Source: Erwinia billingiae Eb661 (lineage in GTDB: Bacteria > Pseudomonadota > Gammaproteobacteria > Enterobacterales > Enterobacteriaceae). From it: a stretch of DNA of 64,000 nucleotides. Made by a program: the position numbers and the translations under genes. Every line of letters starts with the position of its first letter. The stretch's first letter is position 1. The stretch is taken from the NCBI RefSeq assembly GCF_000196615.1, contig NC_014306.1, positions 4,836,001-4,900,000 of the forward strand, given 5' to 3'. This document shows positions 31,184 to 55,576 of the stretch, in pieces. The notes under the pieces were generated by a model, which did not search any database, was not told the origin of the DNA, and worked only from the letters and a program-made list of their open reading frames with translations.

Positions 31184-34100
31184 CTATTTAAAGTCCGCGT
31201 ATGGCGTTAACGGCTCTGGCGGCAGATCCAGATCGCCCTGCCAGCCGGCCATCGAATAGCGCGCATAGATCAGCCCGTGGCTCGGCGTATAGTCTTTTGC
31301 CTGCTGAATATCGACGCCGACGCCCATCGTCCAGTGCGCGCTTAACCGGCGTTCCAACACCGCGCGCAGGGTATAGCCGAATCCGTTGCTGCTGCTGTCG
31401 CTGCTTTGCGGGTTATCCGTGGTCAGCGCGCCGAAATCGAGCGGGTAGCGTGACTGGCCGTCGGTTTCCGAATGGGACCAGGAAACCGAACCGCCGAGAT
31501 CGTAAGACCAGTTTTCCGTGCGCTGCCGCCAGCTGACCGGCACCGAGAGCGAGCTGTAACGCTGCGGGCTGTAATAGCCGCCCTGTCCAAGTGAGTAATC
31601 ACTCAGATCCTTCGCGTAGTGCCACAGCATGCCGTTCAGGCCGATGGTGGCCCGCCGGTTGTTTTCGTTGATCAGCTTGTAGTAATAGCCCGCCATCAGG
31701 CGTTCGCGGCTGTTATCCGCCACGTTTTCGCCGGTGATCTGGTGCGCGCTGAGATCGGCCCAGACGCCGTTGGCGTTGCCCTGGTCATAGCTCAGGCCAA
31801 TCGCGCCGCCGGTTGCCACCACGCCGCCCCAGGTTTTGCCGCTGGCGGTGTTGGGATCCTGCGCGCCGGCATAGGCGAGCAGCGAGCTGGAAATCGGCCG
31901 CCGCGACGCGGTCAGCGACACGCCGATATCCTGCCAATCGGTGTTCCAGGTGACGCCACCCACCCAGTTGGTGACCGCAAAGCCCAGCGGCGTGGTGCCA
32001 ATATCCGCGCGCCATTTATCGCTACGGTAGCCGACGCCAAGGCTGGTGCCGTTCTGATGCTGGCGGAAATCGCGGTTGCAGGTCGCATCGTCATTGGCAC
32101 AGGTGCCGAACGTCTCATCAATATTTCCATCGACGTTGCGCGAGAAGGTGCCGGCCGACACATCGACATTATCCAGCCGCAGGAAGCTTTTGCCGTCGGC
32201 AAATGGCGTTTCGGCTTCCATCATGGTGGTGTGCGCAGTGAAGTCGGACACGCCGCCGGTGCCCTTATTGCGCGAATAGTCCTCTTCCAGCGTCAGCGTG
32301 CTGTCCTGCTGACGATAAAGATCGGCGGCATCGCTGCGGATACCGCGCTTCAGCCAGTCATCCCGCCGTTCGTTGCGGGTCAGCCGGGTAAAGGTTGGGT
32401 TATCCGGCGGCACCACCAGGCTGATGCCGCTGGCGACCATCGCCTGGCGGTAATCCTCCTGCGCGAAGTGAGGCTGACCCTGCTGCGCTTCCAGACGGGC
32501 GGCATCGCGATAGATCAGCGCGCTGCTTTGCGACGGCCCGTCTTTTGCGGCCTGGGTTTTCAGCCCGGCATACAGCGAGGTGGCTTTCTGCGGCTCGCCC
32601 ACCGCCAGCCAGGCATTGGCCACCCGCCGTCCGCTGTAGACGTTCGCCGTGGACGCCTCGGGCGGCAGCGCGTTCAGCTGCTTACGCGCGGCGGCCAGCT
32701 GATGGCGGGCGATCAGGGCCTCAATGTTATCCAGGCTGGCTTCCGCGCGGGCGATTAGCAGGCCGGTTTCCAGCCGGGTATTGAGGTCGGTGATATTGTG
32801 ATCCCACTTTGCCTGCGGCAGCGTGTGGATCTGCGCCAGCGCGGCCTGTGGCCGGTCGCTGCCTGACAAATAGAGCGCGTTGGCATAGACCTGTGCCGGC
32901 ACGCCGGGCTGCTGGCGCGCCATCGCCTGCATCTGCCGATCGGCGGCCTGCGTCTGCCCACTCTGACGCAGTGCGCCCGCCAGTCGGGTGTTCAGCCAGA
33001 CGTCGTCCGGCGACAGCTGGAGTGCCTGACGGTATACGTCTGCCGCCTGCCGCACGTTTCCGCCAGCCGCCAGCCTGTCCGCCTCGGCGCTGAGCGCACT
33101 GCTGCGCAGGCTGGCGAGGGTATCACCCAGCGCCTTTTTCTGTGAGGCCGGTAGCCCGTTGATAAACGCCATCGCCTTTTGCGGTGACTGCTGTTGATAG
33201 AGTGCGGCCAGCCGTCGGGCGGCGGTGGTATTGCCTGCATCCAGCCGTAACGCGCGGCTGTACTGCACTTCCGCCGTGGCCGGATTTTTCTGTGCCAGCG
33301 CCACGTCGCCCAGCCCAATCAGCGCATAGCTGTCGCGGTTATCCAGCGAGCGCGCCCGCTGATACTGACTGGCGGCCTGGGGAAGGTTGCCCGCCGCCAG
33401 TTCTTTGTCACCCTCGGCAATCGCCAGCCAGTACTGGTTGGAAGTCAGCAGGCTGCGCCATTTGCCGATATCGGTGCCCTGCGCATCGGCGACAATCGCC
33501 CGCTGAAAATAGCCGTTTGCCTCGGCGCGCTGGTTGGCCCGCGCCAGCGCCTGGCCCATGGCACCCAGTAAATCGGCATCGTCTGGCGTCGCCTTTAGCG
33601 CAGCACGCAGGGCGGGAATGGCAGCGCTGCTTTGACCGTCATCGATCATCGCCAGGCCGCGCAGCCGCTGCTGGTAAGCCGGATCGGCCAGCATTTTTTG
33701 CTGCCGCGCCAGCTCGGTCAGGCCGTCGGACTGCGGCTTGTCACTGGTAAAGGTGGCGAGATAGGTTTTCAGCTGGGCGACGCTTTGCGGCGTGACCGGC
33801 TGCGATTTGATATGGCTCAGCCACAGTTCGGCGGCCTGCACCCGGCCCGCCGGATCCATTGCCACCACTTGCAGTTGTTTAACGGCGGCGGTCGGGTTAT
33901 TGCGGCTCAGCTCCATTTGCGCAATCGCCATGCGCACGTTGATGCTGCCCGGCGCATCGCGATCCAGCGCGGAGAGTTCGGCCAGCGCGCGGTTTTCCTG
34001 TCCCGGCAGCCGCGACACTAACCGCCAGTATTCCAGCGCGATATCTGGCGAGGGAAAGACGCCGTTGAACTGTTTATCGTAAGCCGCTTTGGCCTCTTCC

Positions 34101-34492
34101 AGCCGGCCAGAGGTGGCGAGAAGCCGCGCCAGCTGCAGCTGTTTCCTGCCCTCGTCAGATAGTAAGCGAATACTAACTTCAGCCTGCCGCGTCGCCAGCG
34201 AATCGGGCGAAACCTGCTTCAGCGTCACCATCAGCTGACGCGCTTTGTCCTGTTCGCCCTGGTGCAGCGCCAGGCGGATCTGTGCCGCCAGCACCTGCGG
34301 ATTATCCGGCGCAATTTTTTCCAGCCGGTACAGCGACTGGCTGACCAGATCGTATTTCTGGGTCGCTTCGCCAATCCTGACCTGTTGCAGCAGCCAGTCG
34401 ACCGGCTCAACGTGATCGGGTGCCGCCGGCACGGCGCGGCTTAACGGCCACAGCAGCAGCGGCAACAACAGGCTGAGTCGCGAACGTTTCAC
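31184..34492 (-). CDS. bcsC: Cellulose synthase outer-membrane subunit BcsC (E. coli-type locus)
   Basis: 1102 aa. A signal peptide is followed by about 700 residues of tetratricopeptide repeats in the periplasm, then a C-terminal 16-strand-type beta-barrel that exports the glucan. The barrel part includes LAYAGAQDPNTASGKTWGGV and FSPQ-like YYSPQRYSSLSVPVSWRQR, both typical BcsC segments, and ends in a lysine-rich PYADFK rather than a terminal aromatic-only strand. Its start overlaps the bcsB stop by 4 nt. In E. coli bcsZ sits between bcsB and bcsC; here it is missing. Confidence 0.92.
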   Translation of the reverse strand: MKRSRLSLLLPLLLWPLSRAVPAAPDHVEPVDWLLQQVRIGEATQKYDLVSQSLYRLEKIAPDNPQVLAAQIRLALHQGEQDKARQLMVTLKQVSPDSLATRQAEVSIRLLSDEGRKQLQLARLLATSGRLEEAKAAYDKQFNGVFPSPDIALEYWRLVSRLPGQENRALAELSALDRDAPGSINVRMAIAQMELSRNNPTAAVKQLQVVAMDPAGRVQAAELWLSHIKSQPVTPQSVAQLKTYLATFTSDKPQSDGLTELARQQKMLADPAYQQRLRGLAMIDDGQSSAAIPALRAALKATPDDADLLGAMGQALARANQRAEANGYFQRAIVADAQGTDIGKWRSLLTSNQYWLAIAEGDKELAAGNLPQAASQYQRARSLDNRDSYALIGLGDVALAQKNPATAEVQYSRALRLDAGNTTAARRLAALYQQQSPQKAMAFINGLPASQKKALGDTLASLRSSALSAEADRLAAGGNVRQAADVYRQALQLSPDDVWLNTRLAGALRQSGQTQAADRQMQAMARQQPGVPAQVYANALYLSGSDRPQAALAQIHTLPQAKWDHNITDLNTRLETGLLIARAEASLDNIEALIARHQLAAARKQLNALPPEASTANVYSGRRVANAWLAVGEPQKATSLYAGLKTQAAKDGPSQSSALIYRDAARLEAQQGQPHFAQEDYRQAMVASGISLVVPPDNPTFTRLTRNERRDDWLKRGIRSDAADLYRQQDSTLTLEEDYSRNKGTGGVSDFTAHTTMMEAETPFADGKSFLRLDNVDVSAGTFSRNVDGNIDETFGTCANDDATCNRDFRQHQNGTSLGVGYRSDKWRADIGTTPLGFAVTNWVGGVTWNTDWQDIGVSLTASRRPISSSLLAYAGAQDPNTASGKTWGGVVATGGAIGLSYDQGNANGVWADLSAHQITGENVADNSRERLMAGYYYKLINENNRRATIGLNGMLWHYAKDLSDYSLGQGGYYSPQRYSSLSVPVSWRQRTENWSYDLGGSVSWSHSETDGQSRYPLDFGALTTDNPQSSDSSSNGFGYTLRAVLERRLSAHWTMGVGVDIQQAKDYTPSHGLIYARYSMAGWQGDLDLPPEPLTPYADFK

Positions 34493-36789
34493 TCCTCGTC
34501 GTCCTCGTCACCGAGGCGATGACGGCTGACGCGGCGCATCAGTCGCCACACCAGCAGCGCAAACAGGATCACCACCAGCGTGGCAAACGCCGCCAGCATC
34601 ATCGGATGGGTGGCCAGCGCATTCCATACCCGCTCCCACCACGGCAAATGGCCCACCCAGTAGGTGTCGCCTACGCGCAGGCTGCGCACGCCGGATTCAC
34701 GGATCACCGATGCCGAGCCAAAAATCGCCGCGCGTTTACCGCTGTCGATCAGCGCGCCATTCAGCAGTTCCCAGGCGCGCGGGCTGTCTGCCAGCAGCGC
34801 GACCACGCTGCGTTGCGCATCAAACGGCGACTGGAAGCCAATCACTGCCGCCATCGGCCCAGCGGAGCTGATGGTGGTCTGGCTTTCGGCGCGCAGATCG
34901 TCCGGGGCTGAGGAGCCGCTGGAGAACGCCGTCTGCCGGTTAGGCTTGTTGATCCAGCTTTTCGCCGCGTCCAGCAGCAGATTGACCTTGTCGTCATCCT
35001 TCATCTGTTCAGGCAACCGGCCGATCATCAGCAGATCGGCATCGCTGGTTTTCGCCTTGCTCCAGTCATCGGCGATCTGCATTTTCAGCGCCGGATAGCC
35101 GGTCTGCGCCGAGATATTGCCCAATGCGTTCAGCAGCGCGCTGACTTCGCCCGGCTGCGGACGGTTGTTGACCAGCACCAGCGTTTGCGCCAGGTCAGCA
35201 TTACGGCTGAACGGGAAGCCGGCGTTGGCAAACGCGCCCAGCGACGGCATTTCCATATAGTGGCGATAGCCGGAGAAATCGACCGTCGAATTGCCGTCGA
35301 TCACCACATGGTTGGATACCGGGGTGATGGTTTCGCAGCGCCCTTCGTTGGTGCCGTTATTAAACGAGCCGCCAATAAAGGTGCTGGCATAATCAAAATC
35401 GAAGCGCAGCTGATTGACCACGCCCAGCTGCAGCGCCGGAATGGTCAGCTGCGTGCCGCCATCCAGCAGCCCCTGCACCAGCGGAATATGCAGCAGCTGC
35501 TTGCCTTCCTCGCGCTTGTTGACCAGCGGGTAATCCTGCACAAACTGGTTGTTGAGGTTCACCGCCAGCCGCGATCCGTCATCCTGCACCGGGGAGGTAT
35601 AGCGGTACTTGATATCCATATCGATACCGCGTGCGCGCACCAGGAACAGATCCGGCGGTAATTTCAGGGTTAACGAGATGGGCGCAGGCTGCATGCCGTC
35701 GGCCTGAAGCTGGCCCTGGAACTGTTGCAGCTCGGCGAAGGTGGTGGCGCGGTCGGTCCGTACCCAGTTTGGCGCATCGTAAGGCTGGCGTGCCGCCAGC
35801 TCCTTCACGCTGTCGATGCTCGAGGCCTGTCCACGCAGCAGCAGTTCGCCCTGCGCAATTCCCTGCACCGCTTTCAGCAGGTCCTCGTCGTTACGCCCCA
35901 GCACCAACAGTAATTTTTGGTACTTATTGTCCGGCTGGTCGATGATTTCCACCGTCGGTTTATCCACCGGCGGCAAATCCTTCAGGAAGTCCGGACGCCG
36001 ATCGTTGGTGGCAAACACGACGGCGTGCTGACGATCCGGCAGCTGGTTATACAGCACCGGGAAGGTCTGTCCACGCCAGTCCGCCTGGGTGCCAAACCAC
36101 GATGCCAGCACCGCAGCCGCGCGCTGTTGGCCGAGATCCGGCGCGCGGGCAAAAATCATCGGCAGGGTTAACGGGCGGCTGTCGCGCGCATCGAAAAACG
36201 GCTCCGGGAAGTGCGATAAATCATCCTTCAAAGGCAGCTTTTGCAGCGACAGATTCAGCGTGCTGTCCTTGCCGATATCCAGCCAGATGGCGCTGCTGGC
36301 CGGGTTTTCGCAGATGTTGGCGTAATGCCCCACCAGCTCAAAGCGGATGCGGTTGAAGTCGCCAATAAATCGCGGGTCAATCGGCACCTGCACCTGATTA
36401 TTTTTACCGGCCTGTTCGGCGACTACCGGTACCAGACCGACCAGCTCGTCGTTCAGATAGACCTTCAGATGCGACATGCCGGGGATCAGCGACGGCGACG
36501 GGCGGAAACTCAGGTTGAGCAACGCGTTGGTCACCACTTCATCGCTGCGCACGCCAAACTCAATCTGCCCCTGAGTGCGGGTGCCGGTCAGGTTGAAGTT
36601 GCCTGGCGGCGGGGCGATCTGGGTAAACGGCCGCAGATAATCCCGCACCGGCGCGGCGGGATCGATGGCCGGAGGTGCCAGGCTGTCCGCCGTGGTGTTG
36701 ACCGGCCGGGTGTAGCCGTCTGCTGCTGCCTGAACCCCTGGCAGCACGCCAAGCCATAATGCGGTGAACCAAGCTAATTTTTTCGTCAT
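34489..36789 (-). CDS. bcsB: Cellulose synthase periplasmic subunit BcsB (E. coli-type locus)
   Basis: 766 aa. Signal peptide (cleavage after VQAAA), two repeats of carbohydrate-binding and flavodoxin-like domains, and a single C-terminal helix (MLAAFATLVVILFALLVWRL) that packs against BcsA. The segments EFGVRSDEVVTNALLNLSF and VNPF-like NRIRFELVGHYANICENP are standard BcsB features. BcsB guides the growing glucan across the periplasm and is required for BcsA activity. It lies 20 nt behind bcsA and is joined to bcsC by an ATGA overlap. Confidence 0.95.
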   Translation of the reverse strand: MTKKLAWFTALWLGVLPGVQAAADGYTRPVNTTADSLAPPAIDPAAPVRDYLRPFTQIAPPPGNFNLTGTRTQGQIEFGVRSDEVVTNALLNLSFRPSPSLIPGMSHLKVYLNDELVGLVPVVAEQAGKNNQVQVPIDPRFIGDFNRIRFELVGHYANICENPASSAIWLDIGKDSTLNLSLQKLPLKDDLSHFPEPFFDARDSRPLTLPMIFARAPDLGQQRAAAVLASWFGTQADWRGQTFPVLYNQLPDRQHAVVFATNDRRPDFLKDLPPVDKPTVEIIDQPDNKYQKLLLVLGRNDEDLLKAVQGIAQGELLLRGQASSIDSVKELAARQPYDAPNWVRTDRATTFAELQQFQGQLQADGMQPAPISLTLKLPPDLFLVRARGIDMDIKYRYTSPVQDDGSRLAVNLNNQFVQDYPLVNKREEGKQLLHIPLVQGLLDGGTQLTIPALQLGVVNQLRFDFDYASTFIGGSFNNGTNEGRCETITPVSNHVVIDGNSTVDFSGYRHYMEMPSLGAFANAGFPFSRNADLAQTLVLVNNRPQPGEVSALLNALGNISAQTGYPALKMQIADDWSKAKTSDADLLMIGRLPEQMKDDDKVNLLLDAAKSWINKPNRQTAFSSGSSAPDDLRAESQTTISSAGPMAAVIGFQSPFDAQRSVVALLADSPRAWELLNGALIDSGKRAAIFGSASVIRESGVRSLRVGDTYWVGHLPWWERVWNALATHPMMLAAFATLVVILFALLVWRLMRRVSRHRLGDEDDEE

Positions 36790-39404: not shown

Positions 39405-39454
39405 AACGTCGACCCAGGGCGGGCAATTGACGCCGGGGCGATAAACGGCTTCAT
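39401..39454 (-). CDS. 17-codon mini-ORF coupling bcsQ to bcsA
   Basis: The frame starts with the ATG in the ATGA at the bcsQ stop and ends with the TGA in the GTGA at the bcsA start, encoding MKPFIAPASIARPGSTL. Both joints are 4-nt overlaps, so ribosomes could pass bcsQ, mini-ORF and bcsA by re-initiation. It may be a coupling device or a chance frame; no separate function is claimed. Confidence 0.3.
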   Translation of the reverse strand: MKPFIAPASIARPGSTL

Positions 39455-40182
39455 GACGCCTGCTCAGCCAGATGGATCAGCGCCCAGCTGGCAAAGGTCA
39501 TCATCTCTTCTGCCGCCAGGCTCTGCGGGCGATATTCGCTAAACGGCTGCTTGCGCAGCAGCGCTTCCGCCACCGCCTCATCGCGATGGAGTGTCAGCGG
39601 GATCAGGTTCTGCAACGTCGCCAGCCACAGCTGATGCAGATCCTGCTGCGAACGGCTGACCGGGAAGAACTGATTCAGTAAGAACAGGTTATTGGCGGTA
39701 AAGCGCTGCTGATGCAGGCGGATATGGCAGTTGGCATCGGGCACCATCACGCTGATGGTGCGGTCAGCCAGCGCCAGCAACGCCCGCGTCCACGGCGTGG
39801 TGCCGGCAGGAACATCCAGCAGGATCCAGCGGTAGGTTTGCCTGAGTGTGGCAAGCTGCGCGGTCCAGCCATCCAGACCGGCCTGCGGCTGGCTGACAAA
39901 GGCCATCAGCTCGTCGTCATTCAGCTGGCCGAAGGGGATAAAATCCAGCTCGGGCGCATAGCGCAACGCACTTTGCTGCCAGGGCTGGCGATCGAGCGCG
40001 GTGCGCAGCCAGCCACGGGGATGATCCGACGCGGTATTGAAGTGCATCCGCAGCTGGTTATCGGGCGACATATCGATGGCAATAACCGACTCGCCCAGCG
40101 TATGCAGCGCCCAGCTCAACCCGGCCACCAGCGAAGTGGTGCCCGCGCCGCCGCGCAGCCCCTGAAAGGCAATTACCGGCAT
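39451..40182 (-). CDS. bcsQ: Cellulose biosynthesis ParA-like ATPase BcsQ (E. coli-type locus)
   Basis: 243 aa. MinD/ParA-family (SIMIBI) ATPase that forms a complex with BcsR and, with BcsE, regulates synthase assembly and localisation at the cell pole. The P-loop is the deviant GLRGGAGTTSLVAGL at about 8-22, as in E. coli BcsQ (GVRGGVGTT); the lysine of the usual GKGGVGKT is absent in both. LDVPAGTTPWTR is the switch region. The start overlaps the bcsR stop (TAATG). This BcsQ is of the E. coli branch and differs strongly from the second copy at 54 kb. Confidence 0.9.
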   Translation of the reverse strand: MPVIAFQGLRGGAGTTSLVAGLSWALHTLGESVIAIDMSPDNQLRMHFNTASDHPRGWLRTALDRQPWQQSALRYAPELDFIPFGQLNDDELMAFVSQPQAGLDGWTAQLATLRQTYRWILLDVPAGTTPWTRALLALADRTISVMVPDANCHIRLHQQRFTANNLFLLNQFFPVSRSQQDLHQLWLATLQNLIPLTLHRDEAVAEALLRKQPFSEYRPQSLAAEEMMTFASWALIHLAEQAS

Positions 40183-40376
40183 TACGCCACCTGCTTACGG
40201 ACGTCCGTGGCCCGTTCCGCCAGTAACGGCCAGCGGGCAACGATCGCCGCCAGTCGCTCTTCGCGGGCGATATCAATATAGCGCCAGTGTTGTAAAGAGA
40301 AGGCGTCGGCTAACGCGCGAATGTCATCCTGTGATTCATTGCTTACTGATAACAGCGGATGTCGCGGCTCACTCAT
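40182..40376 (-). CDS. bcsR: Cellulose biosynthesis protein BcsR
   Basis: 64 aa (E. coli 62). Small regulatory partner of BcsQ in the synthase complex. The conserved segment is recognisable: DIRALADAFSLQHWRYIDIA then EERLAAIVARWPLLAE, matching E. coli ALKQAFSLPDIDYADIS and LAAALKRWPLLAE. The ATG at 40376 with AAGGG upstream is preferred over an in-frame TTG at 40382. First gene of the bcsRQABC operon, divergent from bcsEFG. Confidence 0.88.
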   Translation of the reverse strand: MSEPRHPLLSVSNESQDDIRALADAFSLQHWRYIDIAREERLAAIVARWPLLAERATDVRKQVA

Positions 40377-40563
40377 TATCAAACCCTTTTTTACGCAGCG
40401 GAAGGTGCCAAAAGTGGCGGGGTGTTCTAAGAATTAACTTAGGGACAGTTTAAATGGGTTTGGCAGAACTTGTAATGTATATTTACAGCAAGATAAGTCA
40501 GGCAATCTATTTTCATCTGCTCACCACTCACTGTTTTTAATAGGACGTGTTGCGATAAAACTT

Positions 40564-43930: not shown

Positions 43931-43940
43931 TTGTTAAAAA

Positions 43941-43976: not shown

Positions 43977-43996
43977 TTTATTGCCTGCGGAGCAGA

Positions 43997-44998: not shown

Positions 44999-45006
44999 TA
45001 TCTTCC

Positions 45007-45476: not shown

Positions 45477-48400
45477 TTATTTGTCCCCGAGCATATAGCG
45501 GAAATAGAGTTTCGCGCTGCTTTCGTTGTAATCACCGAAGGTGTCGTAGCCCAGCTGGCCGCCAATGGTGACGTCTTTATTCACCTTGTAATCCGCACCG
45601 GCGTGCAGATTATAGCCAATGCCGTTTTTGCTGCCGCCTTCGTAATAGGCCTCGGTGGCGTAGCCCGCATTGTAATAGCTTTCCAGCTGCGCCTGTTTAT
45701 CCGGATCCGTTGGGAAGTAGGCGCTGCGATCCTGCGAGTAGGACTGATAACCCACCGAGCCGCCGACCTTCACCTTCAGATCGTCGTAGTTCTTGCTCCA
45801 GTCAACCGGGAACGACACCGCAACAAAGTTCTGCGGGCTGAAGTAACCGCCCTGGCCGTAGGTGTAGTAGCTGAGGTTTTTCGAGAAATCCATCCAGCTC
45901 ATGCTGATACCGGTTTTCAGCTCGCTGCTGTCGTCATGGAACGGACGCACGTAGGCGCCCGCCTGGCCCATGATGCTCTGGTTGCTTTCAACGTTCTCAC
46001 CGAGATAGCTGTAACCGCCCGCGCCGAAGTAGAAACCGGCGTCGCCGTTGTCGTAGCTTAACAGCGCATCGCCGCCGTTTTTGGTCACGCGGCCCCAGCG
46101 CTTGCCACTCAGCTTGTCTTCAACGCCGACATAAGAGAGCAGGCTGTCGGTGACCGAACGGCGTTCACCGGTCAGGATCAGCGTCAGGTAATCGGTCAGC
46201 TTCGGTGACCACTGAATGCCGCCCACCAGCGTGCTGAGATCCTGGCCCAATGGCGTCGAGCCGAGGTCAATTTTGAAGTTGTCGTTGGTCAGGCCGAGGT
46301 TCACTTCAACCCCGGAGGCGTTCTGCGATCCCGGTGAATCCAGCTTCACTTCCGACGGCAGCACGTTGTTGGCCTGCGCGCTGCGGCCCTGCTCCAGCGC
46401 CTGGGTACCAAAGCGCGGCGTGGCCGAACTGTTGGCACTGCCCGCGCTGAGGGTCACCGGCGTTAAGGTGAAGTCGAAACGGGTGTCGCCATACGGCACC
46501 GTTGACCAGGTCAACGGCGCTTTGGCTTCGGTCAGCTTACTGAGGCCGGATTCGCCATCACGCCCTCTGACCTGTACGCCGCCCTGTGCCCAGGTGCCGG
46601 TGCGCTCCTGCAAATCGTCCATCATGGTATCGATCTGATGCAGCGTCTGGCTCTGCTGCGACGGCACGTCCACACTGGCGGTTTGCATCGCTGCATCGCT
46701 GCTGCCCGCCGGGGCGTTCTGCCATGGCATCACCGCGCCATACGCCGAAGGGGAACGACGCTGCGATGGCGTGGTGCGGTTGATAAACGGATTGTCTGCC
46801 AGCGCCAGGCCGCCGATTGCCGGGTTGGAGCCGCTTGAGGCGCCTTCCAGGCCGATCATCTTGCCGCGCGCGGTGCGCAGATACGCCAGCGCCTGCTGAT
46901 GGTCGCCATCGGCTTCCGCCACGCGCGCCATAAGCAGCAGGCGCTCCGGGGTTTGCTCGCCACGCAGTCCGGCCACCAGGCCTTTTGCCTTTGGCAGATC
47001 GTGACTGGCCAGCGCCACGTCAATCGCGCCAACGCGGGCATCCTGGGTTGGCGTGTCGCGGGTCATCAGGTAGTCATACACCACGCCCGCTTCTTTGTTC
47101 ATTTTGCCGGACTGATAGAGACGGCCCATGGCAAACATCAAATCGGTGTTCTGCGGATCGCGCTGCAACGCGCCGATCAGCTTGTCATAGGCCGCGGCAT
47201 ACTGCTTCTGATTCCGCAGACGGTCGGCTTCGTTGATCACGTAGCCGTTCTGAATGCCTGCCAGCTGGGTTTGCGTGCTGCGCGACTGCAGTTCCGGGTT
47301 GCTGAGGAAGCGCTGCGCTTCGCCGCTCAGCCCGGCCTGGTTCAGCACCGCCACCTGCGCGGCATAATCGCCGGCATTGCCCTGCACGCCGCGCTGCATA
47401 TTGTTGCGTACCACGGTTACCGCCGTCGACAGATCGCCGGCATCGGCCAGCCCTTTCGCCAGGTTACCCGCATCGGCCGGGTTCTCCGGTGGGTTCACCG
47501 CCAGCGCTTTCAGGGTGTTCGCCGCCGCGGCATTCGAGCCCTGCGCCAGATACTGCTGCGCCACCGCCATCTGCAGATTGAAGTTAGCCCTGCGCGACAG
47601 CTCGCGCATTTCGCTGCTCTGACTGCGGGCAGGAATACGGGCGATCAGCGTCTGCACCTGCTGCCAGGCCCCGCTTTCGCTGGCAAACAGGGCGCCGGCG
47701 TAAATTTCGTTATTGCTTGCGCCGTTACGGAACGCCGGCTGCATGATGCCCGCCGCCAGGCTGGTGTTGCCCTGCTGCTGGTAAATGCGCGCCAGATCGA
47801 GGCGAAGCCAGGGATCGGTTGGGAAGCGCTGAGTGCCCTGTTGCAGAATGGCAATCGCCTGCTGGGTATTGCCTGCCGCCAGCGCCTGCTTCGCCTGACG
47901 GCGCACCGGATCGCTGGTCACCGCCGGTTTCGGCGTCACGCTTTCGCGCACGCTTTCCGGCAGAGACGACAGCAGCGTATTGGCTTCTGCGCCACGGTTC
48001 TGCTGACGCAGCACGTAGAACAGCCCTTCTTTCGCCGGACGGTTGTCCGGGTCGCTCTGGATCACCGAGCGGTAGGTCTGCTCCGCGGCGTCGAGCTGGT
48101 TGCTGCGGCGCTGCACATCGGCGCGGAACAGCTTCGCCGACACGCCTTTTTCGCCGTCGGCCTGGGTCAGGGGTTCACTGAGGCTGAGCGCCTGCGCGGT
48201 ATTCCCGGCCTTCATCGCCTGCTGCGCGGTGGCAAGCTGGGCATAGAAACGGGCGTCGGCGGCCTGGGTCATGCGCTGCTGGCTGTTTTCACCGCCCTGC
48301 TTCGCGGCACGATCGAGATAGTCCGCCGCCGCGGCATAGTTGCCGTTACGCTGGGCGACATAGCCGAGACCCGCCAGCGCATCGGCATCTTCCGGGTTGG

Positions 48401-49289
48401 CCTGCAGCACCTGATTAAAGGCAGACTGTGCGCCGGAGACGTCACCGCTGTTCAGCGCGGTAAAGCCCTGGCCTTTCTCGGCGCCGCCGGCGTTCTTACG
48501 GTAATAGTCCATTACCGCGCGATCCTGCGGGTGACGCTGCTGATAGTTCTGGTACAGCGGGGCATCGGCCGGCTGCGGACCGAGCCATAACAGGCCCTGA
48601 CGCAGCGAGCGGTCCGCATCCTGGTTGCCATCCGCCATGCCGGCCAGCGTTTGCAGACCTTCGCGGCGGGTGGATTCCTGGTAGGTCAGCGCCTTGCCCA
48701 GCGCCAGCTTCGCGCCGTTATCCTGCGGATTTTGCGCCGAGAACTGACGCAGGTTATCAATCGCCTGCGGCAGCAGCGAACGGTCGCCCGCCATGGTCAG
48801 GTAATATTCTGCCGCCACGCTGGCCGGCGGCTCGTTGCCGCTGAAGGTGTTGCGCCAGGTTTGCAGCGACGCCGAGATATTGCCGCTGCGGGCCTGCTGA
48901 CGGGCCAGCGACAGCTGCGCCGCCGGGATCGACTGCAGCTGACGGGCCTGGTCCAGCTCCACCAGATGCGCATCATCCGGCGAGACCTGGCTCAGACGCG
49001 TGCGCCATTTGCTGGCCGTCGCGCTGTCACCGCTCTGCTGTGCCCACAGCGCCATCAGGTAAATGGCCTGAGTGTTGCTGCTGTCGACCATCAGCACTTT
49101 GTTCAGCGCATCGCGGGCCAGCTCGTCATGGGCCTTCTGGTGCCAGTAATTGGCCTGATCGAACAGCGCCTGGATGGCCGGGTTGTTCTCCGCTGCCAGC
49201 GCCGGGAAAACCAGCGCAGAGGCAGCCAGCGTCATGCCGGGAACCCAATGCTGACGAAGTCTGGCGGTCAGTGTTTTTATTTTCATCAT
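45477..49289 (-). CDS. bcsC: Cellulose synthase outer-membrane subunit BcsC (bcsO/D-type locus)
   Basis: 1270 aa, larger than the first copy. Signal peptide (cleavage near FPALA), a long TPR array to about residue 780, a Ser/Pro/Gln linker, and a C-terminal beta-barrel beginning near residue 920 with LNLG-type EVNLGLTNDNFKIDLGSTPLG and SYVGVEDKLSGKRWGRV; the last residues form the barrel strand SAKLYFRYMLG. The two BcsC copies share architecture but little visible identity in the TPR part. It follows bcsB by 5 nt. Confidence 0.93.
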   Translation of the reverse strand: MMKIKTLTARLRQHWVPGMTLAASALVFPALAAENNPAIQALFDQANYWHQKAHDELARDALNKVLMVDSSNTQAIYLMALWAQQSGDSATASKWRTRLSQVSPDDAHLVELDQARQLQSIPAAQLSLARQQARSGNISASLQTWRNTFSGNEPPASVAAEYYLTMAGDRSLLPQAIDNLRQFSAQNPQDNGAKLALGKALTYQESTRREGLQTLAGMADGNQDADRSLRQGLLWLGPQPADAPLYQNYQQRHPQDRAVMDYYRKNAGGAEKGQGFTALNSGDVSGAQSAFNQVLQANPEDADALAGLGYVAQRNGNYAAAADYLDRAAKQGGENSQQRMTQAADARFYAQLATAQQAMKAGNTAQALSLSEPLTQADGEKGVSAKLFRADVQRRSNQLDAAEQTYRSVIQSDPDNRPAKEGLFYVLRQQNRGAEANTLLSSLPESVRESVTPKPAVTSDPVRRQAKQALAAGNTQQAIAILQQGTQRFPTDPWLRLDLARIYQQQGNTSLAAGIMQPAFRNGASNNEIYAGALFASESGAWQQVQTLIARIPARSQSSEMRELSRRANFNLQMAVAQQYLAQGSNAAAANTLKALAVNPPENPADAGNLAKGLADAGDLSTAVTVVRNNMQRGVQGNAGDYAAQVAVLNQAGLSGEAQRFLSNPELQSRSTQTQLAGIQNGYVINEADRLRNQKQYAAAYDKLIGALQRDPQNTDLMFAMGRLYQSGKMNKEAGVVYDYLMTRDTPTQDARVGAIDVALASHDLPKAKGLVAGLRGEQTPERLLLMARVAEADGDHQQALAYLRTARGKMIGLEGASSGSNPAIGGLALADNPFINRTTPSQRRSPSAYGAVMPWQNAPAGSSDAAMQTASVDVPSQQSQTLHQIDTMMDDLQERTGTWAQGGVQVRGRDGESGLSKLTEAKAPLTWSTVPYGDTRFDFTLTPVTLSAGSANSSATPRFGTQALEQGRSAQANNVLPSEVKLDSPGSQNASGVEVNLGLTNDNFKIDLGSTPLGQDLSTLVGGIQWSPKLTDYLTLILTGERRSVTDSLLSYVGVEDKLSGKRWGRVTKNGGDALLSYDNGDAGFYFGAGGYSYLGENVESNQSIMGQAGAYVRPFHDDSSELKTGISMSWMDFSKNLSYYTYGQGGYFSPQNFVAVSFPVDWSKNYDDLKVKVGGSVGYQSYSQDRSAYFPTDPDKQAQLESYYNAGYATEAYYEGGSKNGIGYNLHAGADYKVNKDVTIGGQLGYDTFGDYNESSAKLYFRYMLGDK

Positions 49290-49294
49290 GTCGG

Positions 49295-51829
49295 TTACTT
49301 CTTCTCGCCAGAGGAATCGGAATCATGTTGCGGGTTCAGTCGCTTCCAGGCGTGGCGCTTCAGCAGCACAACGGTGCTCAGGCCCACCAGCACAGAGAAC
49401 AACAGCGCCAGCAGGGCTAACACCACCGCATGCTGGTTGGCATACCAGATCACCATCATGTACCACGGCATCTGGCCGCTCGGGAACTGCGCGCCGACGC
49501 GGAAGCTGCGGATACCGTTCTCATCGGTGATGATCGCCGTATCGCCCCGGATGCCGGCGTTAATGCGCGGCGACGTCAGGTCGTGATGCAGGCGGGAAAG
49601 CTGGGCATCGTCGGTGGCGACGGTCATCACCACCACCCGTGAACTGTTCCACGGCGAGCTGTAGCTGATAAAGCCGCGCCAGTCTTCGTTCGACGAGAAG
49701 TAGCGATCCGCATCCACCGCCTGGCGGTACCAGTCACCGGTCAGCCAGCCGCGCAGGTTATCCAGCAGCGTCGGCTCTTTAACGCCGAGGGTGTGGCCGT
49801 TCACATCGTACGGCGTGCCCTGCAACATCGACTGGTTGAAGGCCGTCTGCGACAGGGTCGAAACCGCCAGCACATCGCTGTTCTTCAGGCGTCCCAGCGA
49901 GGTTCCGCCCGCCGGAATACCAAACATCACGCTGTTGTGGCTTAACGCCACGCCGGTGGCATTGCCCGAGCGTCCGGCCATATCCAGCAGGGTGCTGATT
50001 TCAGCATTGCTTGGCGAGGACGGCAGCATCAACACGGTCTGCGAGTAGTCGGCAAAACGGGTGAACGGGAAGGCCGCACCGACGAAATACGACAGGTTCG
50101 GCAGCAGCGTAAAGTGACGCGTGTGGCTCAGGTCAATATAGGAGTCGTCTTCGATCCGGCTCTTGATATTGTTGTTGCTTAACACGCTGCACGGCGCATC
50201 GGCCTTCGGCTTGATGTTGAAGTACAGCTGCAGCTGGTTGTCACCGTAAATCAGGTACGGGTCGAGCTTCAGGGTGTAGTTTTCCTGACGCGCATCGCCG
50301 CCCAGACGGTGCCAGACGCTTTCCAGCAGGCCGACCTTGTTGACGGTCAGGTTACGCAGGAAGGTGCCGTTCAGCCCGACGTTTAAGAACGATTTGTCCT
50401 CATCAATCCAGCTTTCCGACGGGAAACGGTAGTTCAGCTTCACCGGCAGGGTGTCGCCATCCCACAGGAACAGGTCCGGCGCGGCGCGGAAGTTCACCCG
50501 CAGCGCGTCATGCCAGATCCCGGTGGTGGTCATGCTTTGATCTTTACGCAGCAGATCGCTGAGGCGAACCGGACGATCGGTGTTGATCCAACGCGGCGCG
50601 TCGTACGGCTTGCTGACCGGGATATTCTGCGCAGCCACCGCCAGCGACGGCACGTCGACGCTCAGCGGCTGCGTCAGACGCCAGGCCGCCTGACGCAGCG
50701 CGTCATCGTCCTTACCGATCACCAGCATCAGCTTGTAAACCGGGTTCACCGGGTTATCGATCACCTGCAGGCTCGGGCCGGTCACGCGTGGGATCGCCAC
50801 GCCCGCCACCATTTCGCCCGGATGAGCAAACAGGATGCCGTTTTTCTCTGGCAGCTCGTTACGCAGCACCGGGAAGCTGATGCCACGGTAATCGGTCTGG
50901 ATACCCATCCACGAGGAGACAATTGCCGCCGCGCTGACTTCACCCGGCGACACCGCATCGCCAAACACCATCGGCACCACCGAAGGGGTCATGCGCAGCG
51001 GATCGATAAACGGGCGCGGGAAGTTGCGCAGCGTGTTACCGATATTCAGCTGCTGGCCTTCCAGCGACAGGGTGGTTTTCGGCAGGATGGTGACCTGATA
51101 CTGACTGGCGCTGTCGCGCTCGCACAGCAGCTGATCGGCATCGTTAATCTTGAAGCTCAGGTTGTTGCTGGAGACCACCATCGCGGCGGGAATATCCAGC
51201 TGATAATCTTCGCTGGCGCTGTCTGAGGCGCTTAACGGCAGCGTGCCCAGCGGCTGACCGTTGAGCATCAGCTGCAGCGAGGTGTTACGGGCGGCCAGCG
51301 CCTGAGAGACCTTCAGTGACAGGTTCAGACGGGCGTTAGTGATCACTTCATCCGTTGGCAACGTGAAGACGATACCGGACTGCAGCTGACCGCCGGTCAA
51401 CAGAATGCCGTTGGTCTGGCCCATCTGGCCGACCGACACGGTGCTGGTCAGCGGCTGATTCAGCAACACGGGCTGCGCCGGGGCGGAAACCACCGGCGCG
51501 GGCAGCGGCGGCAGGCCCGCCGGCAGACCGGTGGCCGGATCCGGCTGCCTGGTCGCTGCGCTGTCCGCCGTGCCCGGTGCCGGCTGGGCAGCATCGGGCT
51601 GCGCGGCCGGATCGGCGGCGGGCTGGCTCATCTGAGAGGCCGTGCCGGTTGCCTGGTTCATCTGTGCCGAATAGCCCGGAGTGCTGCCGGTCTGCTGGCC
51701 TACATCGGCCGGCGGTGGGATCTGGGACAACGCATTGCTGTCCTGGGTCACGCTTTCCGGCGCGGCCCAGACGCTGCTCAGGGTCAGGACCCCGGTAAAA
51801 CAGAGCGCAGGTAATATCAGTCGCTTCAT
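49295..51829 (-). CDS. bcsB: Cellulose synthase periplasmic subunit BcsB (bcsO/D-type locus)
   Basis: 844 aa. Signal peptide (cleavage after SVWA), then a long Gln/Pro/Ala-rich, probably disordered segment (about 40-115) absent from the first BcsB, followed by the usual carbohydrate-binding and flavodoxin-like repeats (FTLPTDEVITNARLNLSLKV, FPRPFIDPLRMTPSVVPMVF) and a C-terminal helix (AVVLALLALLFSVLVGL). Its start overlaps the bcsA stop by 4 nt. The extra linker could widen the reach of this subunit; that is inference. Confidence 0.94.
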   Translation of the reverse strand: MKRLILPALCFTGVLTLSSVWAAPESVTQDSNALSQIPPPADVGQQTGSTPGYSAQMNQATGTASQMSQPAADPAAQPDAAQPAPGTADSAATRQPDPATGLPAGLPPLPAPVVSAPAQPVLLNQPLTSTVSVGQMGQTNGILLTGGQLQSGIVFTLPTDEVITNARLNLSLKVSQALAARNTSLQLMLNGQPLGTLPLSASDSASEDYQLDIPAAMVVSSNNLSFKINDADQLLCERDSASQYQVTILPKTTLSLEGQQLNIGNTLRNFPRPFIDPLRMTPSVVPMVFGDAVSPGEVSAAAIVSSWMGIQTDYRGISFPVLRNELPEKNGILFAHPGEMVAGVAIPRVTGPSLQVIDNPVNPVYKLMLVIGKDDDALRQAAWRLTQPLSVDVPSLAVAAQNIPVSKPYDAPRWINTDRPVRLSDLLRKDQSMTTTGIWHDALRVNFRAAPDLFLWDGDTLPVKLNYRFPSESWIDEDKSFLNVGLNGTFLRNLTVNKVGLLESVWHRLGGDARQENYTLKLDPYLIYGDNQLQLYFNIKPKADAPCSVLSNNNIKSRIEDDSYIDLSHTRHFTLLPNLSYFVGAAFPFTRFADYSQTVLMLPSSPSNAEISTLLDMAGRSGNATGVALSHNSVMFGIPAGGTSLGRLKNSDVLAVSTLSQTAFNQSMLQGTPYDVNGHTLGVKEPTLLDNLRGWLTGDWYRQAVDADRYFSSNEDWRGFISYSSPWNSSRVVVMTVATDDAQLSRLHHDLTSPRINAGIRGDTAIITDENGIRSFRVGAQFPSGQMPWYMMVIWYANQHAVVLALLALLFSVLVGLSTVVLLKRHAWKRLNPQHDSDSSGEKK

Positions 51830-53925
51830 GCCACGCCATCCTCTTCCTTCACGGCCTGACGATGACGCTTCGCACGACGATCTTTCCAGGTCAGCCAGAA
51901 CAATTCAAATACGGTACGGATAATGGTAATCAGCGAGCGGAACGGTTTGTCCTTCTCGCCTTCTGGCTTGATCCAGGCGTCGGCGCGCGAGAGCACCACG
52001 CGCACCAGTTCGCGGCGGCGTGATAACGGGATCTCATCAAACATCAGGCGGATCACCCCGTTGTCCGAGCCCATAATGCTCACCGGAATCGAGATAGTGC
52101 CGGACTGCAACATCAGGTCGATGGCTTCGATTTCATCATTTTCATGACGGTCATCCGGCGCGTTAACCTGTGCGCCACCCATCGACAGATCCACCGTGGT
52201 GGTGCGTGAAGAGATGCCGCTGGCGTAGTGCAGCACCACCGGAATATTCACCTCGATACGGATGGTTTTACGCGTCTGTTTGGTTTCGCGCGCCACGGCA
52301 ATCGCCGCCATCAGGATGATCAGGCTGAACATCGCCCAGCCGACGTTGAGGGCGATGACGTAAGGATCCACGCCGAAGTAGTCATGCGCCACGGCACGGA
52401 CAATGCCGCTCACCACGCCAATCGTCAGCAGCGCGGCACAGATTACGTGTGGACGCACGATGTTGAAGTCGAAGAAGCCAACGTCCAGCAGGCCGCCCTT
52501 ATCCGTTACGTTGAACTTGCCGTGCTTCGGCGAAATCATCGTCAGGAGGGTTGGGATAACCAGGTGGAAGGCCATCACCGTTTCGTAGATTTCCCCCCAG
52601 AAGGTGGCGCGGAAGCGGCCGTTCATGCGGGAGTTGACGTACAGCGACATCACCAGATGCGGCAATACGTAGGCGAAAATCAGGCTGGCTGAGGAGTGAA
52701 TGATGTTCAGGTTGAACAGCAGATACGCCAGCGGCGCGGTCAGGAAGATTACGCGCGGCAGACCAAACTGGAAGTGCAGCATGGCGTTCAGGTAGCACAG
52801 ACGTTGCTGCCACTTCAGGCCACGGCCCAGCAGCGGGTTATCCACGCGGAAAATCTGCGTCATGCCACGCGCCCAGCGGGTACGCTGAATGATGTGCAGA
52901 CCCAGACGTTCGGTGGCCAGGCCCGCCGCCAGCGGCAGCGCCAGGAAGGCGGACTTCCAGCCCAGACGCTGCATTTTCAGTGCGGTGTGCGCATCTTCGG
53001 TCACGGTTTCGGTGGCAAAGCCGCCGATCTCTTCCAGCGCAGACCGGCGGATCACCGCACAGGAGCCGCAGAAGAAGGTGGCATTCCAGTTGTCGTTACC
53101 CTGCTGTACCGGGCCATAGAACAGCGCGCCTTCGTTCGGGATATCGCGCGCGGCTTTCAGGTTGCGCTCAAATGGGTCCGGCGAATAGAAGTAGTGCGGC
53201 GTCTGTAACAGGGCCAGTTTCGGGTCTTTCAGGAACGGTGCCACGGTGGCCTGCAGGAAGGCGCGGGTGGCGACGTGGTCGCAGTCAAAGACGGTAATCA
53301 GCTCGCCTTTGGTAATGCGCATCGCGTGGTTCAGGTTACCGGCTTTGGCGTGGCGGTTATCGTCACGGGTGATGTAGCCCACGCCCGCATCGGCGGCAAA
53401 CACCGCAAATTCGCTACGCTTGCCGTCATCCAGCAGGTAGATTTTGATTTTGTCGCGTGGGTAGTCGATGCACTGGGCAGCGAGCACGGTATCGCGCACC
53501 ACATCGAGGCTTTCGTTATAGCTCGGCACGTAGATGTCGACGGTCGGCCATAAGCTGACGTCTTCCGGCATCGGCTCGATGGTTCTCTTAAGCGGCCATG
53601 ATGTTTGCAGGTAGCCGAGGATCAGGATCAGCCAGACATACACTTCGGCAATAAATAAGCCGATGCCTAAGATCGCTTCCACTTCGGAATTGAATGAGAG
53701 GGTTTCCGTCGCACGCCAGTATATATAGCGCGTCGACATTAATGCCGACAGGAACACCATTACCATAGAAATTTTGCGGCTTTTACTGAAGCCCATAACA
53801 AAAAGAATGGCAATAGAAATCAGACCAAAAATATACTGCTTCTGGCTGTCCATTGGGGTGATCACAATCACTGCGGCGAGCGGGAATAATACCAGCAGCA
53901 ACAGGTAATACAGGACTTTTTTCAT
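51826..53925 (-). CDS. bcsA: Cellulose synthase catalytic subunit BcsA (bcsO/D-type locus)
   Basis: 699 aa, lacking the ~150-residue N-terminal extension of the first copy. GT2 motifs are complete: DDG at 166-168, DCD at 214-216, TEDAH at 309-313, QRTRW at 347-351. The PilZ domain has RKTIR (RxxxR) and DLSMGG (DxSxxG), so it should also be activated by c-di-GMP. Eight or so transmembrane helices flank the catalytic loop. A 92-bp spacer with two hairpins separates it from bcsQ. Confidence 0.95.
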   Translation of the reverse strand: MKKVLYYLLLLVLFPLAAVIVITPMDSQKQYIFGLISIAILFVMGFSKSRKISMVMVFLSALMSTRYIYWRATETLSFNSEVEAILGIGLFIAEVYVWLILILGYLQTSWPLKRTIEPMPEDVSLWPTVDIYVPSYNESLDVVRDTVLAAQCIDYPRDKIKIYLLDDGKRSEFAVFAADAGVGYITRDDNRHAKAGNLNHAMRITKGELITVFDCDHVATRAFLQATVAPFLKDPKLALLQTPHYFYSPDPFERNLKAARDIPNEGALFYGPVQQGNDNWNATFFCGSCAVIRRSALEEIGGFATETVTEDAHTALKMQRLGWKSAFLALPLAAGLATERLGLHIIQRTRWARGMTQIFRVDNPLLGRGLKWQQRLCYLNAMLHFQFGLPRVIFLTAPLAYLLFNLNIIHSSASLIFAYVLPHLVMSLYVNSRMNGRFRATFWGEIYETVMAFHLVIPTLLTMISPKHGKFNVTDKGGLLDVGFFDFNIVRPHVICAALLTIGVVSGIVRAVAHDYFGVDPYVIALNVGWAMFSLIILMAAIAVARETKQTRKTIRIEVNIPVVLHYASGISSRTTTVDLSMGGAQVNAPDDRHENDEIEAIDLMLQSGTISIPVSIMGSDNGVIRLMFDEIPLSRRRELVRVVLSRADAWIKPEGEKDKPFRSLITIIRTVFELFWLTWKDRRAKRHRQAVKEEDGVA

Positions 53926-53957
53926 AAGTCATCCTGAAAACGAGACTATTATTTTTT

Positions 53958-54015: not shown

Positions 54016-54017
54016 GA

Positions 54018-54815
54018 TTAGCGCGATCTCAGCGGCGCCTGCATTTCACCGTCGCCGACCTTGATATCCAGCAGCGCAGCAATACGCTTGCTGACGATCT
54101 CAATATCAAAGGCCGCCGCCGAAACAGGGCTGAAATCAAAGATGGACTGCTGCGAGGCATTGGCTTCCGCCACGCTCTCATCGCGATTCACCACACCCAA
54201 CAACCGGTCGCCCAGTCGCTGTTGCATAAAGGCCGTTACGTCACGACTGATGTTGCGGCGGCTGTCACTCTGGTTCAGCACAAAGAAGTGTCCTGAACGC
54301 TGATTCAGCGCAGCGCCAATCATTTTTTCGTTTTCGATTTGCGGCAGCAGTGACAGCGAAGCGGTATCCGCCAGCATCACCACAAGGTGTAAATCGGCAA
54401 GATCGGTCATTGCCTTTAGGGCTGGACCCGGTCCTGGCGGAAAATCAGCGACAATCACCAGGCCTGGGTAGTTGAGGACGGTATGTAAACCCCGTGCGAG
54501 GAAGTTCGGGTCGCGGGATAAATTATCTTCAAATTCAACACGCTGCTGTTCAGTCACGTCACCATACGGCATCACAAAGATGTTGCCGCCGGTGGTTAAA
54601 ATAGACTGGCTCCAGTCGGGTGATTCGGACGATTTCGCCACGTAACCCCGCCCGTCTGACAACGGCACGCCAAAATGCAGACGCAGGGCGTTCTGCACAT
54701 CAAAGTCGATGGCCAGCACTTTGCTGCCGCCACGGGCGAGGGAATAGGCGAGGTTGGCCGCCAGCGTGGTTTTACCCACGCCCCCTTTGGGAGAACAAAC
54801 ACAAACTAACGGCAT
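54018..54815 (-). CDS. bcsQ: Cellulose biosynthesis ParA-like ATPase BcsQ (bcsO/D-type locus)
   Basis: 265 aa. MinD/ParA-family ATPase with a complete deviant Walker A motif (CSPKGGVGKTTLAANLAYSL, Lys present twice), unlike the first BcsQ copy whose P-loop lacks the signature lysine. LAIDFDVQNALRLHFG carries the Walker A' Asp, and IVADFPPGPGPA the Walker B region. It is expected to position the synthase complex at the inner membrane. Its start overlaps the bcsO end by about 10 nt, so the two are translationally linked. Confidence 0.92.
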   Translation of the reverse strand: MPLVCVCSPKGGVGKTTLAANLAYSLARGGSKVLAIDFDVQNALRLHFGVPLSDGRGYVAKSSESPDWSQSILTTGGNIFVMPYGDVTEQQRVEFEDNLSRDPNFLARGLHTVLNYPGLVIVADFPPGPGPALKAMTDLADLHLVVMLADTASLSLLPQIENEKMIGAALNQRSGHFFVLNQSDSRRNISRDVTAFMQQRLGDRLLGVVNRDESVAEANASQQSIFDFSPVSAAAFDIEIVSKRIAALLDIKVGDGEMQAPLRSR

Positions 54816-55576
54816 GAGGCAATTCTCTCCAGCAGAGGTTGCAGCAAAGTATCTTTCGATAAAGAGGTCACTGACGGCTCCGGCGCGGTGCTGAACAGCT
54901 GCTTAAAGCGCGGCAGATCGGCAGCCGGTTGCACCGGGGCTGCGGGCTGACGAGCCGGTGCAGTCTGCACGGGCGCAGCGGTGGGCAGCGAGGACAGGGA
55001 CGCCATCAGCGGTGACGCGGCCGGGGCTGGCTGAGCAGCTGGTGCGGCGGCGGCTGGGGTGGCGAAGGCCGGCTGAGAAGCTGGTGCGGCGGCGGCAAAG
55101 GCCGGCTGAGCTGACGCCAGCGGGTTCTGCGCCTCATTAAACGGGTTCACGGCCTGAGGCTCAGGTGCAGGTGCAGGTTCCGCCACCGGCGCAGGCTTCA
55201 GCGACGCGGATATGCTGTCCAGCAAGGAGCCACCAATCTGCGCTGCCGCCGGTTTCGCCACGAGCGGCGCCACGCTGTGCGACGGCGCGTGCGTAGGCGG
55301 CTGGTGCTGTGGTTTTGGCTGCTGAACCGGCTGCACTGGCTGCGCGGCTTGTCCCAGCAGGGCATCCAGGCTGTCTTCGGCAATCGGTTGCGGCGCAGGC
55401 ACATCGATACGCTGACCGTTGCCTAAAGCCGACTCTGCGCCATCATTCATTAACTGTTTGATGATCGCCCAATTGGCACTGTCTGAATTCTTCGTCTGTT
55501 CAGACATGTCCTTGAATTCGATATGGTTTGTTTGCGTTTTTTCTTTAAAACGCTGCAGGTCATCATAACTTTTCAT
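54806..55576 (-). CDS. bcsO: Proline/alanine-rich cellulose biosynthesis protein BcsO
   Basis: About 256 aa, first gene of the second locus. The N-terminus has the BcsO pattern (MKSYDDLQRFKEKT, then a helix WAIIKQLMNDG), followed by a long low-complexity Pro/Ala/Gln stretch (about 55-225) and a short conserved end (FKQLFSTAPE). The low-complexity DNA contains an 18-bp direct repeat at 55037 and 55079, 42 bp apart. BcsO function is unknown; it co-occurs with BcsD and may take part in spatial organisation. The start at 55576 is preferred by family alignment; neither it nor the in-frame 55621 has a good ribosome site. Confidence 0.78.
   Translation of the reverse strand: MKSYDDLQRFKEKTQTNHIEFKDMSEQTKNSDSANWAIIKQLMNDGAESALGNGQRIDVPAPQPIAEDSLDALLGQAAQPVQPVQQPKPQHQPPTHAPSHSVAPLVAKPAAAQIGGSLLDSISASLKPAPVAEPAPAPEPQAVNPFNEAQNPLASAQPAFAAAAPASQPAFATPAAAAPAAQPAPAASPLMASLSSLPTAAPVQTAPARQPAAPVQPAADLPRFKQLFSTAPEPSVTSLSKDTLLQPLLERIASCR

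What the first reader, a model, noticed from the sequence alone, without database searches (positions are those of the whole stretch)
31184..55576. Two complete, distinct cellulose synthase loci placed tail to tail
The E. coli-type locus (bcsRQABC plus bcsEFG) and the bcsO/bcsD-type locus (bcsO-Q-A-B-C-D-Z) lie side by side and meet at one 16-bp bidirectional terminator. Each BcsA retains all GT2 motifs and an intact PilZ c-di-GMP site, so both look functional. The first should yield phosphoethanolamine-modified cellulose (BcsG), while the second has the BcsD chain-aligning subunit associated with ordered fibres. The cell could therefore make two cellulose materials under a shared c-di-GMP input. 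Dual bcs loci are known in some Enterobacterales; the direct abutment and shared terminator are the notable points.
Basis: partly seen in the sequence, partly recalled or inferred. Interest (0 to 1): 0.72.

Follow-up and report, generated by a model that had tools for sequence, protein, structure and literature searches.

The report
Two cellulose-making gene clusters side by side
A bacterium related to plant-surface Erwinia carries two different sets of cellulose-making genes next to each other, a layout already published for related bacteria; here the two sets appear to share a single helper enzyme.

Summary
The genes are real. Window 31184-55576 holds an E. coli-type (Type II) bcs locus (RQABC plus divergent EFG) and a bcsD-type (Type I/hybrid) locus (OQABCDZ). 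Two corrections: both synthase operons run the same way, so only bcsEFG meets locus 2 tail to tail; and locus 1 lacks bcsZ, so it is not complete.

The layout is not new: it is in print for Enterobacter sp. FY-07 and 638. I found bcsD and bcsG convergent on one contig in 12 of 149 family genomes and 18 of 37 genus genomes. In this genus locus 2 is the near-universal one (BcsD in 34 of 37); two BcsB occur in 17 of 37. The hairpin's sequence is not conserved.

Mechanism: two c-di-GMP-gated synthases. Only BcsA1 has the N-terminal domain that recruits BcsG in E. coli, so phosphoethanolamine cellulose should come from locus 1 alone. The genome's only GH8 cellulase is locus 2's BcsZ, so the two systems probably share it. 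Three relatives without locus 1 keep a bcsE without stops.

An ordinary arrangement with modest new detail.

The parts
31184..34492 (-). bcsC of locus 1
   Evidence: PF05420, TPR; BcsC equivalog
34489..36789 (-). bcsB of locus 1
   Evidence: PF03170
36810..39404 (-). bcsA of locus 1, 864 aa, with E. coli-type N-terminal domain, GT2 and PilZ
39451..40182 (-). bcsQ of locus 1; its P-loop reads RGGAGTTS, without the usual lysine
40182..40382 (-). bcsR
   Evidence: PF10945
40564..42111 (+). bcsE
   Evidence: PF10995
42108..42296 (+). bcsF, 62 aa
   Evidence: PF11120 over its cut-off; below the NCBIfam cut-off
42293..43930 (+). bcsG, phosphoethanolamine transferase
43938..43979 (.). perfect 19-bp inverted repeat, 4-base loop, A and T runs at the ends: probable bidirectional terminator
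43997..45145 (-). bcsZ, GH8 cellulase, the only GH8 match in the genome; the true start is probably downstream, since this frame overlaps bcsD by 139 bp
45007..45474 (-). bcsD
   Evidence: PF03500; nearest solved chains 8poc and 8pog
45477..49289 (-). bcsC of locus 2
49295..51829 (-). bcsB of locus 2
51826..53925 (-). bcsA of locus 2, 699 aa, no BcsG-recruiting N-terminal domain
54018..54815 (-). bcsQ of locus 2, canonical P-loop KGGVGKTT
54806..55576 (-). bcsO, conserved head and Pro/Ala-rich tail
   Evidence: PF17037
29014..31035 (-). flank: GAPES3-GGDEF-EAL protein, HmsP equivalog, next to locus 1
56097..57203 (-). flank: dipeptide-type ABC transporter ATPase next to bcsO

Best explanation
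This is the known enterobacterial dual-bcs layout in an Erwinia genome. Locus 1 builds a Type II complex in which the N-terminal domain of BcsA1 holds BcsG, giving phosphoethanolamine cellulose. Locus 2 builds a separate Type I/hybrid complex (BcsA2, B2, C2, Q2 with a BcsD and probably BcsO scaffold), giving cellulose without that modification and probably more ordered. Both synthases are gated by c-di-GMP through PilZ. The only GH8 cellulase, BcsZ of locus 2, serves both export routes. The hairpin in the 66-bp gap ends transcription from both sides and does nothing more. Shown here: gene content, motifs, the domain difference, one GH8 match, recurrence in relatives, low dN/dS. Inferred: products, sharing of BcsZ, expression, the roles of BcsD and BcsO here.
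For: Families and motifs. BcsA1 aligns full length to E. coli BcsA, BcsA2 only from chain residue 155 on; that domain recruits BcsG (PMC11470070 and PMC11379886, passages). One GH8 match in the genome and in each of the 17 genus genomes with two BcsB. Cellulase activity is needed for pEtN-cellulose secretion in E. coli and CMCax restores it (PMC11379886, passages). dN/dS 0.02-0.25 for 15 of 15 bcs genes against two relatives. Layout in print and in relatives. E. amylovora makes cellulose through BcsA and BcsZ (review passages) and is said to lack bcsEFG, so a locus without EFG can work in this genus.
Against: Enterobacter sp. FY-07: deleting either matching locus left cellulose unaffected and both were poorly transcribed, in a strain with a third operon. 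Nothing here shows expression. Outside the genus sharing of BcsZ is not the rule: of 11 dual-locus genomes checked, 5 have two GH8 and 1 has three. L021 keeps bcsG although most of its Type II synthase genes are gone, which fits poorly with BcsG serving locus 1 only, unless the loss is recent.
Confidence: 0.7

Rival explanations
1. Only locus 2 matters in practice. Locus 1 is a relic on its way out, still intact here but rarely used.
For: BcsD in 34 of 37 genus genomes against two BcsB in 17 of 37; loss in place with remnants in one genome (L123); A, C and Q of locus 1 have higher dN/dS than those of locus 2; silent matching loci in FY-07.
Against: All eight genes of locus 1 are open with dN/dS 0.105-0.215; BcsB is no looser in locus 1 than in locus 2 (0.139 and 0.116 against 0.148 and 0.102).
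Confidence: 0.17
2. BcsG modifies the cellulose of both synthases, so the cell makes two variants of pEtN cellulose and not one modified and one plain product.
For: L021 keeps a full-length BcsG with only the Type I synthase, BcsB1 being reduced to a short stretch.
Against: BcsA2 lacks the recruiting domain; wild-type R. sphaeroides BcsAB, without it, did not co-purify BcsG (PMC11379886, passage).
Confidence: 0.08
3. The abutment and the shared hairpin couple the expression of the two loci and were selected for that.
For: Convergent ends 66 bp apart with a strong hairpin on both strands; one of 10 other junctions, L093, also has A-rich and T-rich sides around its own hairpin (by eye).
Against: None of the 10 other junctions shares the hairpin sequence; 11 of 18 genus genomes have 1.1-5.8 kb between the matched ends.
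Confidence: 0.05

Closest known systems
bcsI - bcsGFE - bcsII arrangement of Enterobacter sp. FY-07 and 638 (PMC4766428, passages)
   Same: Same three units in the same order and orientation: hypothetical-Q-A-B-C-D-cellulase, convergent G-F-E, then R-Q-A-B-C
   Different: FY-07 bcsII has its own bcsZ between B and C, and the strain has a third operon bcsIII; here locus 1 has no bcsZ and the genome has two BcsB
E. coli Type II Bcs system, bcsRQABZC with bcsEFG (PMC11470070, PMC11379886, passages)
   Same: R, Q, A with N-terminal domain, B, C, E, F, G, divergent operons
   Different: No bcsZ in the locus; BcsF and BcsE are diverged from the E. coli-type NCBIfam models
Type I and hybrid Bcs systems with BcsD and a proline-rich partner (BcsH, BcsP; PMC11470070, passages)
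   Same: BcsD, BcsQ, and a Pro/Ala-rich protein at the head of the operon
   Different: The partner is BcsO (PF17037); a BcsR-like head, as in BcsP, is only weakly indicated

Membership tests
Type II Bcs (locus 1) | BcsE and BcsG present | tested here: met
   PF10995 and PF11658
Type II Bcs (locus 1) | BcsA with the E. coli-type N-terminal domain | tested here: met
   Full-length alignment to 9fmv and 9b8v chains
Type II Bcs (locus 1) | bcsZ in the operon, as in E. coli bcsRQABZC (an E. coli trait; not said to define the type) | tested here: not met
Type II Bcs (locus 1) | Product is phosphoethanolamine cellulose | not testable with these tools
   Needs NMR
Type I/hybrid Bcs (locus 2) | BcsD present | tested here: met
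   PF03500; 8poc, 8pog
Type I/hybrid Bcs (locus 2) | BcsE and BcsG absent from the locus | tested here: met
Type I/hybrid Bcs (locus 2) | Proline-rich partner that organises BcsD | tested here: inconclusive
   BcsO is 15% Pro and 20% Ala; interaction not tested
FY-07-type dual layout | bcsD-type locus and E. coli-type locus with bcsEFG converging on bcsZ | tested here: met
BcsR/BcsP family (for BcsO) | Match to the BcsR or BcsP model | tested here: not met
   No such hit at E up to 10 in Pfam or NCBIfam; profile comparison weak, 3 of 150 shuffles as high

The most novel reading that the evidence does not exclude
The neighbours have become interlocked and are not merely adjacent: one BcsZ serves two export routes, and the Type II sensor BcsE has a second client in the Type I synthase, which is why bcsE survives beside locus 2 in some relatives after most or all of the rest of locus 1 is gone.
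Probability: 0.25. Interest if true: 0.5.

Novelty: new member of a known kind. Interest (0 to 1): 0.3.

Why it matters
It is a natural host in which two cellulose machines could be compared in one cell, and it predicts a clean division: phosphoethanolamine on locus-1 cellulose only, and one cellulase for both. The pattern in the genus (locus 2 kept, locus 1 often absent, bcsE sometimes left behind) makes cross-talk between Type I and Type II parts directly testable. The arrangement itself is not a discovery.

Tried and rejected
Rejected: that abutment or a shared terminator is special. Rejected: that locus 1 is complete. Rejected on BcsB alone: a third full bcs locus in this genome (two matches). 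Left open: BcsO as a BcsR/BcsP-type activator. For: the invariant columns of 34 BcsO heads and 14 BcsR share an Asp, an aromatic (Phe/Tyr), a second Asp and a Trp at matching spacing, read by eye; the profile comparison aligns 44 columns where the longest of 150 column-shuffled runs aligned 23. Against: hhalign probability is 0.75% and 1.5%, E about 0.03; 3 of 150 shuffles score as high; no BcsR or BcsP hit for BcsO at E up to 10. No structure was predicted. Not used: the sigma-70 scan, which found 3 sites against 6.7 expected; the terminator scan found 29 against 19.0 expected, and among its hits the junction hairpin appears only in a short form. The 13-base arm of the hairpin occurs exactly only in its own two arms in the window. 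No tree was built, so single ancestry of the layout is parsimony, not a test; PMC7112194 (passages) explains cellulose operon duplications by horizontal transfer of two operon clades.
Full report
What is there. The window lies at 4836001-4900000 of contig 3 of a 5.37-Mb genome in three contigs. Between 31184 and 55576 the named bcs genes are open and pass their Pfam cut-offs. By strand they form three likely transcription units: bcsRQABC leftward, bcsEFG rightward, bcsOQABCDZ leftward. The two synthase operons therefore point the same way, and only bcsEFG meets locus 2 tail to tail. The flanks are an HmsP-type GAPES3-GGDEF-EAL protein and dipeptide-type transporter ATPases.

The junction. 66 bp separate the stop codons. 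Positions 43938-43979 form a perfect 19-bp stem with a 4-base loop and A and T runs at its ends, folding at -36.3 and -39.9 kcal/mol on the two strands against shuffle means of -17.0 and -16.4. It is very probably a bidirectional terminator. Its sequence is not conserved: one search printed 12 junctions, one the window itself and two (L087, L023) identical; none of the 10 others carries this sequence. They form other hairpins, and one (L093) has an A-rich and a T-rich side by eye, so a bidirectional terminator of different sequence may recur. In the genus, 18 genomes (own included) have bcsD and bcsG on one contig, all convergent. In 7 of 18 the matched ends of bcsG and bcsZ are at most about 175 bp apart, in 11 they are 1.1-5.8 kb apart (my count). 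G178 has the two genes on different contigs and is not counted; its bcsG contig carries a second GH8 match facing bcsG.

Not a new layout. PMC4766428 (passages) describes for Enterobacter sp. FY-07 a bcsI operon (hypothetical protein, yhjQ, bcsA, B, C, D, cellulase), bcsG-F-E in the opposite orientation, then bcsII (yhjR, yhjQ, bcsA, B, Z, C), and says that strain 638 is the same. A table in PMC11231211 (passage) gives locus tags for Mangrovibacter that run in the same order. In 149 family genomes, BcsD matches in 40 (39 over the cut-off), BcsG in 57, both in 25 (my overlap): 12 convergent on one contig within 10 kb (own included), 3 far apart on one contig, 10 on different contigs. I mapped the 11 besides the window: each shows both BcsA sets in this order; in G028 bcsG is in fragments. 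Of 36 named loci found through BcsG, 8 show bcsZ and bcsD beyond bcsG, with at most 10 kb of flank held and two loci much shorter.

Which locus is the core one here. In the 37 genomes of the genus (own included) BcsD is in 34, BcsG in 19 (each also with BcsD), two full BcsB in 17. Of the 15 genomes with BcsD and no BcsG I mapped 10: in 4 no other queried gene lies between bcsZ and the EAL gene, in 5 a bcsE does, and in 1 remnants of bcsG and bcsC1 do. The simplest reading is that the genus ancestor had both and that locus 1 was lost in place more than once. I built no tree, and PMC7112194 (passages) favours horizontal transfer for cellulose operon duplications in general.

How each locus should work. 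BcsA1 aligns over nearly its full length to E. coli BcsA; BcsA2 aligns from chain residue 155 on. In E. coli that N-terminal domain recruits three copies of BcsG (PMC11470070, passages). [quoted passage not shown] sphaeroides BcsAB does not co-purify BcsG (passages). So phosphoethanolamine should go onto locus-1 cellulose. Both synthases keep the catalytic and PilZ motifs. BcsD is closest to solved chains 8poc and 8pog, the latter from Enterobacter sp. 638. BcsO has a conserved head and a Pro/Ala-rich tail. Proline-rich BcsH and BcsP organise BcsD into scaffolds elsewhere (PMC11470070, passages); BcsO may play that part, which is inference. For E. amylovora, reviews tie cellulose to BcsA and BcsZ (passages) and PMC9544554 says bcsEFG is not encoded in or beside its cluster (passage), so a locus without EFG can work in this genus.

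One cellulase for two systems. The genome has one GH8 match, locus 2's bcsZ, and so has each of the 17 genus genomes with two BcsB, own included. Of 12 handles searched one (G197, from L019) has the same GH8 coordinates as genus member G157 and is dropped; of the other 11 dual-locus genomes 4 have one GH8, 1 has one in two pieces, 5 have two and 1 has three. G028 was not searched. So sharing is usual in this genus and not the rule outside it. Of 13 Pantoea-type handles 12 were held; each has a GH8 gene (11 as one match, 1 in two pieces), in G185 apparently just beyond bcsC of locus 1. Cellulase activity is needed for pEtN-cellulose secretion in E. coli, and CMCax restores it (PMC11379886, passages), so use of locus 2's BcsZ by locus 1 is plausible.

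Are both loci kept working? dN/dS against G165 and G183 is 0.024-0.247 for the 15 bcs genes. A, C and Q of locus 2 (0.024-0.065) are tighter than those of locus 1 (0.105-0.215); BcsB is not (0.148 and 0.102 in locus 2, 0.139 and 0.116 in locus 1); BcsO is loosest (0.237, 0.247). dS reaches about 1 in places, and BcsA2 against G165 covers 402 codons only. Against function: in FY-07 deletion of either matching locus left cellulose unaffected and transcription was very low, in a strain with a third operon.

Leads. bcsE occurs in 23 of 37 genus genomes: the 17 with two BcsB, a shortened one in G173, and 5 of the 15 BcsG-less genomes, of which 3 have no stop and 2 have one. The three end before the last 20-40 positions of the model. 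Between L115 and L118 bcsE has dN/dS 0.244, near bcsZ (0.195) and bcsD (0.205) in that pair; the L116-L115 value, 0.218, rests on a saturated dS of 1.43. L116 also keeps a BcsR match. One search for bcsE with Erwinia and cellulose listed 10 of 21 papers, of which I read passages of three (PMC9544554; PMC7112194; PMC11231211), so I make no claim about print. L021 (Pantoea sp. BAV 3049) has lost bcsR, Q and A, most of bcsB1 and part of bcsE but keeps bcsG.

Verdict.

Noticed in passing
L003 11828-13339, L018 13791-15296, L021 11638-13242, L019 11632-12672 (all minus strand): The bcsG-bcsZ gap of relatives often holds extra genes: three frames match a T6SS Tle1-like family and one a bestrophin (4 frames scanned). 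The gap may be an insertion spot; 11 of 18 genus genomes have 1.1-5.8 kb there.
   Followed up: partly
L115 2312-3766, L116 2205-3746, L118 10980-12431 (intact); L120, L121 (with a stop): bcsE kept beside locus 2 after loss of bcsG and the Type II synthase, with low dN/dS in one pair.
   Followed up: partly
L021 5673-11638: Deletion joining the end of bcsB1 to the middle of bcsE, with bcsG kept: a natural test of whether BcsG serves the Type I synthase.
   Followed up: partly
54806-55576 and 40182-40382: The BcsO head shares spacing of an Asp, an aromatic, a second Asp and a Trp with BcsR; statistically weak.
   Followed up: partly
39451-40182 and 54018-54815: BcsQ1 lacks the usual P-loop lysine (RGGAGTTS), BcsQ2 has it (KGGVGKTT).
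   Followed up: no
G000 contig 3, 3374759-3375055, outside the window: Weak second BcsG-family match (25 bits) in a 590-aa frame, perhaps another phosphoethanolamine transferase (inference).
   Followed up: no
G178 contig 46, 2251-4398: A second GH8 gene facing a partial bcsG on a contig without bcsD, in a genome 91% complete.
   Followed up: no
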